Source of the DNA: Nitrosopumilaceae archaeon AB1(1)
GTDB taxonomy: Archaea > Thermoproteota > Nitrososphaeria > Nitrososphaerales > Nitrosopumilaceae
Direction: 5' to 3'
NCBI GenBank assembly: GCA_033471095.1
Contig: CP136752.1
Span: forward strand, 416,765-464,251
DNA: 47,487 nt
Both the position numbers and the translations under genes were made by a program. The notes under the pieces are model-generated. The model saw only the letters and a program-made list of their open reading frames with translations. It was not told the origin of the DNA and made no database searches. Of this stretch, positions 26,609 through 29,641 are shown piece by piece (within the stretch, counting starts at the first letter, position 1; each line of letters starts with the position of its first letter).

Positions 26609-27484
26609 TTATTTTAGAAATTTTTTATTCACTTTTAGATATTTGGAAATAAACCATTTTACAAATATCATCTCGTTTTTTTTCAAATATGAAGATTCTA
26701 ACTTGTTAATGTATGTGTATTTTTCTTTTGGTTCAACATTTAACATTGGATAATTATTCCTATTTAGAATAAAGAGGATTAATAGCCTTCCAATTCGTCC
26801 ATTTCCATCAATAAATGGATGAATTAATTCAAATCTTAAATGAAATCTTGCTGATAATTCAACTGAATTCATTATTTTCTTTTCTTTATTATACCACTTT
26901 ATCAAACCATGCATTTCCTCTGAAACATCAGGCCATAAAACATACTTTGTTTTCCCCAAGTACGGTTGTACATTGTTTCTTCTAAAATCTCCTGCATTAT
27001 TGGTATCGGTTTTTTGAAACAATGTATCATGCCATCTCAATATCAACTGTGCAGTAATATCATTATCTTGACTTAACATTTCATCAAATAATTTTTCAAA
27101 CTGTTGTGCTTCTATAACATCCTCTAATAGAATATCTTTGGGAGATAAACCAGTCTCTAAGAGTTTACGAGTCTGAGTGAATGTCATAGTGCTCCCCTCA
27201 ATTTTTTGAGTACTAAAAGTATGAATTATTTTGAAAGCATGGGTTTCCTCTTTTAAAATTTTTTTATCTACATCTACGATATATTTAGAATAATTTTTAT
27301 GTATTTTTTCAATCAAAATTACTTTATCTTCTCTATAACATTTCAAATCAAAGTCCATTTTTTGCGTTTCGATGTCTTTGGGGATTTTATCACCTAGATA
27401 TTTTTGTCTAGGATTATTCCTAGATGAATACTTGAGATAATAGAGATTGTGTCCTTTATTTTTTCGTTTAATCAAACTTACCAT
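26609..27484 (-). CDS. Fic family protein (class II, predicted AMP transferase)
   Basis: 291 residues. The catalytic loop 'HPFIDGNGRIGRLL' fits HPFx(D/E)GNGRxxR. Upstream, 'TQKIEGS' (about residue 92) fits the inhibitory helix (S/T)xxxE(G/N), so the enzyme is probably self-inhibited (class II). The N-terminal part (about 1-60) is basic and may be a small binding domain. Fic proteins transfer AMP to target hydroxyls; the target is unknown. It is preceded by an 11-bp inverted repeat straddling its promoter and lies with PIN and HNH-HIT genes in an accessory patch. Confidence 0.9.
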   Translation of the reverse strand: MVSLIKRKNKGHNLYYLKYSSRNNPRQKYLGDKIPKDIETQKMDFDLKCYREDKVILIEKIHKNYSKYIVDVDKKILKEETHAFKIIHTFSTQKIEGSTMTFTQTRKLLETGLSPKDILLEDVIEAQQFEKLFDEMLSQDNDITAQLILRWHDTLFQKTDTNNAGDFRRNNVQPYLGKTKYVLWPDVSEEMHGLIKWYNKEKKIMNSVELSARFHLRFELIHPFIDGNGRIGRLLILFILNRNNYPMLNVEPKEKYTYINKLESSYLKKNEMIFVKWFISKYLKVNKKFLK

Positions 27485-27871: not shown

Positions 27872-28594
27872 TTAATGAATATATTTGATGGATGGACAGC
27901 GTATACGTATGGAATGTTCACTCATTATTGATTGTACTTCTAAGAAACCTGTATCTCTAGTATAAAATTCAACCATTGTCTTACAATCAGATGTAGCGAT
28001 GGCAGTCGATAATATAATACGATCATTATGTCCTATTAACGCATAAGATAAATGAGTTTTCAAATGTTTTTGTGTTTTTTTTGATAAATTATATTCATGC
28101 TTTGCATTTTCTTTTTCATTACCTAATTTGATATTGGGTTTTACCCGTTTTTTAAATAAAAATTCACACTTTATTTTAGATGTTTTAACTCGATTCTCAG
28201 CATCCATGATAGTTTTACTAATTTTCTTTTTTACAAGTGTTTTATGTTTAGACTTCCAATATGCATCATCACATATTTTATTAACAATTCGCAAATGTTT
28301 TTTATCATCTTTTAGGGTACGAATTTGAAAATTTTTACATATAACTTCAAATATTTGAATATCTTTTTTGTTCAAATTTTGTTTTAACTCGAATTTTATT
28401 GTGTCTGTTATGAATACACCTTTTTGAGTCATATCTTTAGATATTGATGAAGTTATGTGTTTGATAGAACCCGGATCAATACCATGTAAAAATCTATGAT
28501 TTTTGGGGAATAGGGACATAAGAATATTTGTATCTATTATCATGATTGTCTTTGTACAATCCAAAGCATTCACGTTTGTTTGGTTTTTTGTCAC
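27872..28594 (-). CDS. PIN-domain-like ribonuclease
   Basis: 240 residues. The PIN acidic residues appear in order: Asp in 'MIIDTNILMSL' (about 21), Glu in 'TIKFELKQ' (about 68), Asp in 'GHNDRIILSTAI' (about 190) and Asp in 'FYTRDTGFLEVQ' (about 212). A long Lys-rich insertion (about 85-175) separates the halves and makes it larger than toxin VapC proteins. It is probably a metal-dependent RNase; its target is unknown. No antitoxin-sized ORF adjoins it. The start is a GTG at 28594, but the ATG at 28543 just before the first PIN strand is also plausible. It is divergent from the HNH-HIT gene. Confidence 0.75.
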   Translation of the reverse strand: MTKNQTNVNALDCTKTIMIIDTNILMSLFPKNHRFLHGIDPGSIKHITSSISKDMTQKGVFITDTIKFELKQNLNKKDIQIFEVICKNFQIRTLKDDKKHLRIVNKICDDAYWKSKHKTLVKKKISKTIMDAENRVKTSKIKCEFLFKKRVKPNIKLGNEKENAKHEYNLSKKTQKHLKTHLSYALIGHNDRIILSTAIATSDCKTMVEFYTRDTGFLEVQSIMSEHSIRIRCPSIKYIH

Positions 28595-28735: not shown

Positions 28736-29641
28736 TTGGATTTTAATGCACTTGAAAATTTTATAAAAAACACAATGAAACTAACACACATTTATCAACC
28801 TCTTATGATAAAGACCCTTTTAGAACACAGTAATAAAGCAACAGTAGAAGACATTGCAAAAAAATTTCTAGATAATGATAAATCACAATTAGAGTATTAT
28901 AAAAAAATAACAAAGAGATGGCCACACATCACATTAAAACGACACAAAGTAATTAGTTATGAAAAAGAAACCTATACCCTATTACTTGATGATCATATTA
29001 CCAATAAAGAAAAAAATAGATTGATTGAGCTCTGTGATTGTAGACTACAAGAATTTGTTGATGGTAATCCTATGATCATTAATGCGCGTAATATAGATAA
29101 TAGAATCGTAAGTGGAAGTCTCAGATATGATGTATTCGCAAAGTCTAAAACGAGATGTGTAGCTTGTGGAATATCTACATTTAATTCCTCACTTCATGTT
29201 GATCATATATTCCCAATTAGTCGAGGTGGTAAAACGAAGATTGATAATCTACAGGCATTATGCTACAAATGTAATACAGAAAAAGGGAATCGAGATGACA
29301 CCGATTTTATAAAATGGGATAATAGGCTCAAATATAGAAATGTAAAATGTACATTATGTAAGATAACAGAGCCGATAAAAGAAAATAATATGGCTCAAGC
29401 TGTATATGTTATAGATACAGATATCAAATTACATTCAATGGTAATACCAAAAAGACATGTGGATACGTTTATTGATTTGATACCAGCGGAAAGACATCTA
29501 TGTCTTGAATTGGTAGATTTGTTAAAGGAAGATATTTTAGTAAAAGATAAGACAGTCAATAAATTTCATGTAAGTTTTGATTCTACAGGCAATAAAACTA
29601 CACCTCATTGTTGTATAAATATAATCCCAAATCGTCAATAG
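28736..29641 (+). CDS. HNH endonuclease fused to a degenerate HIT-like domain
   Basis: 301 residues. The N-terminal 110 are helical and possibly DNA-binding. The HNH domain (about 135-190) has 'TRCVACG', 'LHVDHIFPISRGG' and 'NLQALCYKCNTEKGNR', with intact metal and zinc residues. A HIT-like domain follows (about 205-300): 'CTLCKI', 'LHSMVIPKRHVDTFIDLIP', and 'PHCCINIIP', where HIT proteins have HxHxH; the second and third His are Cys and Asn. The first listed codon is TTG at 28736, but a TATA box (TTTATAAA, 28723-28730) would place the transcript start near 28750 and favour the ATG at 28775. Confidence 0.78.
   Translation: MDFNALENFIKNTMKLTHIYQPLMIKTLLEHSNKATVEDIAKKFLDNDKSQLEYYKKITKRWPHITLKRHKVISYEKETYTLLLDDHITNKEKNRLIELCDCRLQEFVDGNPMIINARNIDNRIVSGSLRYDVFAKSKTRCVACGISTFNSSLHVDHIFPISRGGKTKIDNLQALCYKCNTEKGNRDDTDFIKWDNRLKYRNVKCTLCKITEPIKENNMAQAVYVIDTDIKLHSMVIPKRHVDTFIDLIPAERHLCLELVDLLKEDILVKDKTVNKFHVSFDSTGNKTTPHCCINIIPNRQ

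What the first reader, a model, noticed from the sequence alone, without database searches (positions are those of the whole stretch)
28736..29641. HNH nuclease fused to a HIT-like domain without the histidine triad
An intact HNH motif is followed by a HIT fold that keeps CxxC, the PKRH helix and the final strand, but has H-C-C-I-N in place of HxHxH. Loss of the nucleophile suggests a nucleotide sensor rather than a hydrolase. A nuclease with a nucleotide-binding sensor is the design seen in many signalling-based immune effectors, making this a candidate defence or stress effector.
Basis: partly seen in the sequence, partly recalled or inferred. Interest (0 to 1): 0.65.

Follow-up and report, generated by a model that had tools for sequence, protein, structure and literature searches.

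The report
HNH nuclease with dead HIT domain
A marine ammonia-oxidising archaeon carries a probable DNA-cutting enzyme made of a DNA-reading domain, an intact HNH nuclease and a HIT domain that has lost both its catalytic and its nucleotide-binding residues but kept the residues of a zinc site, so it looks like a restriction-type nuclease with a structural leftover rather than a nucleotide sensor.

Summary
The 301-aa TTG-started ORF has an intact HNH and a C-terminal HIT fold with H-C-C-I-N for HxHxH. Full-length homologues are sporadic: 12 of 250 genomes of the family, scattered bacteria, and three viral-collection contigs. In most, the HIT triad is intact. The window belongs to one supported archaeal clade that lost it. 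That clade also lost the other conserved nucleotide-site columns and the C-terminal extension. All six members with a complete C-terminus keep C205, C208, H241 and H291, which match a GalT-type zinc site. So the HIT domain is best read as a zinc-held structural pseudoenzyme, not a nucleotide sensor. The N-domain carries Y-Q-P and W/M-P at positions like the sulfur pocket of phosphorothioate-reading SBD-HNH restriction enzymes. A structural second look lists an SBD, but profile comparison gives no support. Some bacterial and viral copies sit beside DNA methylases, Cas9, TIR or an integrase, and related HIT genes on plasmids abut HNH genes. Best reading: a restriction-type HNH nuclease. The defence role, target and any link to the host's own dndABCDE cluster are inferred. 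New variant of a known kind; interest 0.5.

The parts
28736..29641 (+). whole ORF, 301 aa, TTG start: winged-helix N-domain + HNH + triad-less HIT
28736..29095 (+). N-terminal domain (aa 1-120), winged helix with a long C-terminal helix; no Pfam family over its cut-off
   Evidence: (pLDDT 85.6, pTM 0.79)
28793..28801 (+). Y20-Q21-P22, invariant in 24 of 24 aligned homologues; possible reader pocket, first half
   Evidence: compare SprMcrA SBD Y31-Q32
28919..28924 (+). W62-P63; W in 7 of 7 window-clade rows, M in 17 of 17 others; possible reader pocket, second half
   Evidence: compare SBD Y78-P79 / Y164-P165
29096..29323 (+). HNH (beta-beta-alpha-Me) nuclease domain, aa 121-196: C141/C144, D156-H157, N171, C176/C179-N180
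29333..29638 (+). HIT-fold domain, aa 200-301, truncated after the last strand
29348..29359 (+). C205-x-x-C208, putative zinc ligands 1 and 2
29447..29458 (+). P238-K-R-H241; H241 putative zinc ligand 3
29606..29620 (+). H291-C-C-I-N295 in place of HxHxH; H291 kept (putative zinc ligand 4), nucleophile position C293, third His N295

Best explanation
It is a stand-alone, restriction-type HNH DNA endonuclease. A winged-helix N-domain reads DNA and the HNH domain cuts it. The C-terminal HIT domain, a probable working nucleotidyl hydrolase or transferase in most relatives, has become a pseudoenzyme in this archaeal clade and is kept as a zinc-held structural or dimerising element. Shown: the three-domain order, the intact HNH motif, the HIT fold in the model, loss of catalytic and nucleotide-site residues with four Cys/His residues of a zinc-like set kept, and one supported clade with the loss. 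Inferred: nuclease activity, zinc binding, that the N-domain reads DNA, that the protein serves against invading DNA, and what mark or sequence it reads.
For: HNH residues kept in all window-clade rows. HIT fold by model and structure match. Of 43 HIT columns conserved in at least 14 of the 16 triad-intact rows, 8 are kept in all six window-clade rows with a complete C-terminus: C205, C208, P238, R240, H241, E252, L259, H291. The chance that four named columns all fall among those 8 is 0.0006, post hoc. E. coli GalT binds zinc with Cys52, Cys55, His115 and His164 of its HPH motif (PMC5081055, passages). Mean pairwise identity among five window-clade rows: HIT 33%, N 49%, HNH 56%; among 13 triad-intact rows: HIT 52%, N 44%, HNH 59%. 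Tree from N+HNH only: 7 window-clade rows on one side of a branch, 96/93. Winged-helix N-domain. Sporadic: 12 of 250 family genomes. Defence or mobile neighbours in several bacterial and viral loci.
Against: No conserved partner gene. The archaeal triad-less copies sit among housekeeping genes, three of them in the argH-SDH region, and several bacterial loci (L058, L063, L065) show ordinary-looking neighbours (read by eye). Atom positions of the model were not available, so zinc geometry is unmeasured, and human GALT lacks this site. HIT conservation is low enough that the domain could simply be decaying. PADLOC gives only weak matches to the window protein, nearly all over the HNH.
Confidence: 0.5

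Rival explanations
1. One reading: the triad-less HIT is a nucleotide sensor that gates the HNH nuclease, as in signalling-based immune effectors.
For: HIT fold kept at good model confidence. Some HIT proteins are linked to defence: ThsC with 2.4% of Thoeris systems (PMC8565338, passage); PADLOC ThsC matches three of the triad-intact relatives scanned and one stand-alone plasmid HIT.
Against: Nucleotide-site columns are lost along with the triad in all six copies; ThsC does not match the window or L068; no cyclase or nucleotide-making neighbour seen.
Confidence: 0.1
2. The HIT domain is decaying without function; only the reader and HNH domains are under selection.
For: HIT is the least conserved domain in the window clade (33% against 49% and 56%); C-terminus shortened in all; triad also lost in L065 of another lineage (HCFLQ).
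Against: Frame open in all six complete copies; 13 columns invariant in the six, including C205, C208, H241 and H291; a decaying domain should not keep that set.
Confidence: 0.2
3. The N-domain is a true sulfur-binding-domain homologue, so the protein is a phosphorothioate- or other backbone-modification-reading HNH restriction enzyme with a HIT appendage.
For: VIA lists the Hga SBD (8h0l, Z 7.0, 101 residues aligned, rmsd 3.5). Y20-Q21-P22 invariant and W/M62-P/V63 resemble the pockets Y31, Q32, Y78, P79 of SprMcrA and H116, R117, Y164, P165 of ScoMcrA. A two-part motif fitted to both families was found in 29 of 1986 open frames of 150 aa or more: 21 of this family, 8 SBD-HNH, none other. Same order, reader then HNH. 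The host has dndABCDE.
Against: Profile-profile comparison shows nothing (32 of 150 column-permuted profiles score as high). NF045808 does not hit the window protein at E up to 1. Archaeal Orc/Cdc6 winged helices score higher (Z 8.8), Z below 8 may be a common arrangement, and the 50 rows shown from Foldseek list no SBD. P63 is V in 6 of 24 rows. A host with its own PT system should be cut by a PT-dependent enzyme; dnd clusters lie near fewer than 3.6% of SBD-HNH genes (PMC7461809, passages).
Confidence: 0.3

Closest known systems
SBD-HNH phosphorothioate-dependent type IV restriction enzymes (SprMcrA, EcoWI; ScoMcrA with an extra SRA)
   Same: Winged-helix-type reader at the N-terminus, HNH further on; Y-Q and (W/M)-P placed like the sulfur pocket
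   Different: No significant sequence relation; extra HIT domain; host carries its own dnd genes
HIT superfamily hydrolases (Fhit, HINT, bacterial Ap4A-hydrolase-like HIT family)
   Same: Fold; Cys-x-x-Cys, Arg-His and first triad His kept
   Different: Second and third triad His, N, G-Q-T and C-terminal extension lost; fused behind an HNH
Two-gene HIT + HNH modules on plasmids (Polaromonas pPNAP03, Aromatoleum EbN1 plasmid 2, Hymenobacter; probably Persicobacter)
   Same: Stand-alone HIT genes among the nine plasmid records that match the triad-intact fusion, directly abutting a ~340-aa HNH gene
   Different: Separate genes; this HNH protein has another N-terminal part and the comparison finds it related only over the HNH
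Thoeris-associated ThsC (HIT)
   Same: A HIT protein tied to a defence system; profile matches three triad-intact relatives
   Different: No Thoeris partner seen beside the window gene (by eye); the window protein itself does not match

Membership tests
HNH (beta-beta-alpha-Me) nuclease | HNH fold motif with metal/catalytic His and Asn, zinc Cys pairs | tested here: met
   Pfam HNH 52.2 bits against cut-off 21.4; D156-H157, N171, N180, C141/144/176/179 in all window-clade rows
HIT superfamily | HIT fold | tested here: met
   (Z up to 13.2); Pfam HIT below cut-off
HIT superfamily, catalytic | HxHxH triad | tested here: not met
   HCCIN at 291-295; none of the six complete window-clade copies has it
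HIT superfamily, nucleotide-binding | conserved N and G-Q-S/T before the triad (roles recalled from HINT) | tested here: not met
   columns kept in 0-2 of 6 rows
zinc-binding HIT / GalT type | Cys-x-x-Cys, His, first triad His as zinc ligands | tested here: inconclusive
   four residues kept in all six; match of H241 to GalT His115 is by order, not aligned; geometry not measured
SBD-HNH PT-dependent restriction enzymes | sequence relation to the family (NF045808 or SBD profile) | tested here: not met
SBD-HNH PT-dependent restriction enzymes | SBD fold with two-part sulfur pocket | tested here: inconclusive
SBD-HNH PT-dependent restriction enzymes | cleavage only of PT-DNA | not testable with these tools
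   needs enzyme and modified DNA
signalling-based immune effector (CBASS, Thoeris and others) | adjacent gene that makes a nucleotide signal | tested here: not met
   none among the window neighbours listed (by eye), 3 of which were scanned with Pfam
signalling-based immune effector (CBASS, Thoeris and others) | ligand pocket in the fused sensor domain | tested here: inconclusive
   known HIT nucleotide residues lost; a new pocket is not excluded

The most novel reading that the evidence does not exclude
A new family of backbone-modification-reading restriction nucleases, SBD-like reader + HNH + HIT. In most members an active HIT enzyme works on the nucleotidyl chemistry of the modified or cut DNA. 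A two-gene HIT + HNH form exists on plasmids.
Probability: 0.2. Interest if true: 0.8.

Novelty: new variant of a known kind. Interest (0 to 1): 0.5.

Why it matters
It documents an HNH nuclease joined to a HIT domain across archaea and bacteria, fused and as neighbouring genes, which I found in none of the papers that my searches listed, and it shows a HIT domain turned into a zinc-type pseudoenzyme while the nuclease stays intact. If the N-domain reads a DNA backbone mark, it adds a new kind of modification-reading restriction enzyme in ammonia-oxidising archaea, where little is known of defence (recalled), some of which carry phosphorothioation genes.

Tried and rejected
Nucleotide sensor: rejected as best reading because the nucleotide-site columns went with the triad.

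Housekeeping enzyme: not favoured. 12 of 250 family genomes have a single long match of 282 residues or more (G021 is cut by its contig end), but three window-clade copies lie in the argH-SDH region. The other six genomes with a match (18 in all) were HIT only (G038, G167, G193), HNH only (G119), HNH deleted (G032) or broken by stops (G197); I left these out of the full-length count.

IscB/Cas9 relation: NCBIfam IscB and Cas9d match only over the HNH and far below cut-off.

SBD homology by sequence: hhalign in several settings gave no support. One low-threshold realignment put YQP on HKP and WP on YP, but the register vanished when match columns were chosen otherwise, so I do not count it. The motif was written after seeing both families, so only its absence from the other frames, some of them shadow frames, is informative.

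N-domain against PDB sequences: nothing significant. PDLC03656 search for SBD proteins hit another HNH family; NF045808 gave usable SBD-HNH sequences. In one search my frame choice was wrong for some of these loci; for I used the match coordinates instead, and used nine of the 16 loci.

DndC association: 23 of 250 family genomes have DndC; 3 of the 12 hosts, all in the window clade (3 of 7). Hypergeometric 0.086 for 12 and 0.019 for 7. Post hoc, not corrected for kinship, so not used as proof.

Neighbour scans: the proteins for searches were picked by eye and are not an unbiased sample.

Papers: passages only of PMC5081055, PMC8565338, PMC10853773, PMC7461809 and PMC6224610; abstract and one section of PMC7470945; all others as search listings.

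Full report
What is there. The ORF at 28736-29641 (+) has a TTG start and encodes 301 residues. It has three domains, not two. Residues 1-120 match no Pfam family over its cut-off; residues 141-194 match HNH_5 and HNH (6.8e-15, 6.6e-14); the last 100 residues match HIT only weakly (0.0065, below cut-off). AlphaFold2 on a 21-sequence alignment gave a confident HIT part (pLDDT about 84-96 over 201-280) with a poorer HNH part and low overall pTM of 0.45. Foldseek and VIA-align place residues 200-301 on solved HIT proteins (best Z 13.2).

The family. In 250 genomes of the window's family, 18 matched at 1e-10 and 12 had one long open match over at least 282 residues. A scan of bacterial and archaeal genomes found further full-length copies in Alphaproteobacteria, a beta- and a gammaproteobacterium, Desulfomonile, Verrucomicrobia, Bacteroidota and Dehalococcoidia, and three in viral-collection contigs. 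Because that scan used two short peptide patterns, it is not exhaustive. Chloroflexi of the Chloroploca kind have the N-domain and HNH with another C-terminus.

What the HIT domain lost and kept. In triad-intact relatives the end reads GFNxGxNxGxxAGQTxxHxHxHLIPRR...GGxRxVIP. I counted the state in every full-length copy read. Triad intact: 5 of 5 archaeal copies of the Nitrosotalea/Nitrosarchaeum kind, plus L071, which has lost the HNH by a clean in-frame gap; 10 of 11 bacterial genome copies (L057, L058, L059, L060, L061, L063, L064, L066, L069, L080; L065 reads HCFLQ); 3 of 3 viral-collection copies. L055, L056 and L094 are broken frames and L067 ends after the HNH; they are not counted. Window clade: 6 of 6 copies with a complete C-terminus lack the triad, and L070 is cut by its contig end before it. 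Of 43 HIT columns conserved in at least 14 of 16 intact rows, 8 are kept in all six: C205, C208, P238, R240, H241, E252, L259 and H291. E. coli GalT, also of the histidine triad superfamily, binds zinc through Cys52, Cys55, His115 and His164, the last being in its HPH motif, while the human enzyme lacks this site (PMC5081055, passages). Two of the matched structures are titled as zinc-bound or zinc-containing HIT proteins (3o0m, 3r6f). The kept set therefore fits a structural zinc site, and the lost set is the nucleotide and catalytic site. The reading that loss of the nucleophile makes a sensor does not fit, since the residues that would hold the nucleotide went too. Geometry could not be measured.

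One clade. A tree built from the N-domain and HNH only, so without the HIT columns, puts the seven window-clade rows on one side of a branch (96/93) and five archaeal intact rows on one side of another. Since HxHxH defines the superfamily, loss in the window clade is the simple reading. Within that clade the HIT is the least conserved domain (33% mean identity against 49% and 56%), whereas in 13 intact rows it is 52%. Decay is thus a real rival, but 13 invariant HIT columns and open frames speak against full decay.

The N-domain. Modelled alone it is a winged helix with a long C-terminal helix (pLDDT 85.6, pTM 0.79). VIA ranks archaeal Orc/Cdc6 winged helices first (Z 8.8) and lists the sulfur-binding domain of Hga with phosphorothioated DNA tenth (8h0l, Z 7.0, 101 residues, model 1-114). 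Foldseek alone found nothing at E up to 0.001, and its 50 shown rows hold no SBD. SBD-HNH enzymes are known phosphorothioate-dependent restriction enzymes (PMC7461809, passages), and their SBD has been described as a wHTH (PMC10853773, passages). The sulfur pocket is Y31, Q32, Y78, P79, A82 in SprMcrA (PMC7470945, section read) and H116, R117, Y164, P165, A168 in ScoMcrA (PMC6224610, passages). Here Y20-Q21-P22 is invariant in 24 of 24 rows; position 62 is W in 7 of 7 window-clade rows and M in 17 of 17 others; P63 is P in 18 and V in 6; position 66 is T in 7 of 7 and V in 17 of 17. A motif written for both families occurred in 29 of 1986 open frames of 150 aa or more in my loci: 21 of this family, 8 SBD-HNH, none other. 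Against this, profile-profile comparison with nine SBD sequences gave nothing, 32 of 150 column-permuted SBD profiles scored as high, and NF045808 does not hit the window protein. I hold this as a lead, not membership.

Neighbours. No gene recurs as a partner across the loci. Among bacterial and viral loci, Pfam confirmed a C5 DNA methylase and a TIR protein flanking L093, Cas9 next to L092, a ParB/N4-N6 methylase directly upstream of L091, a phage integrase directly upstream of L080, a Schlafen AlbA_2 protein beside L069 and an AAA_25 protein beside L059; L061's chosen neighbour had no hit, and the HIT-less L076 has a C5 methylase nearby. I chose these by eye. L058, L063 and L065 have ordinary-looking neighbours. 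In one Sphingomonas (L057) the open frame also carries a GIY-YIG domain. Archaeal copies mostly sit singly among ordinary genes; L070, L171 and L068 share the argH-SDH region. Of nine plasmid records with related stand-alone HITs I opened eight: in three the HIT gene abuts an annotated HNH gene of about 340 aa, and in a fourth an unannotated one with an HNH_4 match. Relatives of that HNH on other plasmids abut a SAM methyltransferase in three of six opened.

The host. The window's genome encodes dndB, dndC, dndD, a weak dndE and a DndA-like cysteine desulfurase, and a few kb away another HNH protein of the type seen next to plasmid HIT genes. DndC is in 23 of 250 family genomes and in 3 of 12 hosts of this gene, not a firm association. 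A plain PT-dependent cutter would endanger such a host, so if the N-domain is an SBD its target must differ.

Verdict. The mechanism I favour is reader plus HNH cutter with a HIT pseudoenzyme kept as a zinc-held element. Nuclease activity, zinc and target are inferences. Papers: no listing from my searches joined HNH and HIT in one protein; PMC8565338 mentions HIT (ThsC) and HNH (PtuB) as parts of separate systems.

Noticed in passing
L212 9052-15466 (G000:C1 about 1,312,050-1,318,470): DNA phosphorothioation cluster (dndB, dndC, dndD, weak dndE, DndA-like desulfurase) in the window's genome, next to a MutL/MzaB-like ATPase, a RadD-like helicase and, further on, an HNH protein.
   Followed up: partly
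L212 3275-4330 (-); L193, L197, L198, L200: An HNH family with an N-terminal TYKFA motif abuts stand-alone HIT genes on plasmids, or a SAM methyltransferase on others, and occurs near the dnd cluster of this genome; possible unrecognised defence module.
   Followed up: partly
L057 9194-10990: One open frame joins a GIY-YIG nuclease domain to the N-domain, HNH and HIT in a Sphingomonas.
   Followed up: no
L071 2-850: A Nitrosarchaeum copy lacks exactly the HNH domain, in frame, while keeping the N-domain and an intact HIT triad.
   Followed up: no
L074, L075, L076: Chloroflexi proteins with the same N-domain and HNH but a different, unnamed C-terminal part; L076 lies near a C5 DNA methylase and an HhH-GPD protein.
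   Followed up: partly
window 26609-27484 (-): Fic/DOC family protein two genes upstream.
   Followed up: partly
window 27872-28594 (-): 240-aa protein that reads like a PIN-type nuclease at its N-terminus (MIIDTNILMSLF) but has no Pfam match; divergent neighbour of the finding.
   Followed up: partly
L192 2075-3402 (phage phiSASD1): A phage HIT gene directly follows an AANH-like gene (annotated as a PAPS reductase in the other record of this phage).
   Followed up: no
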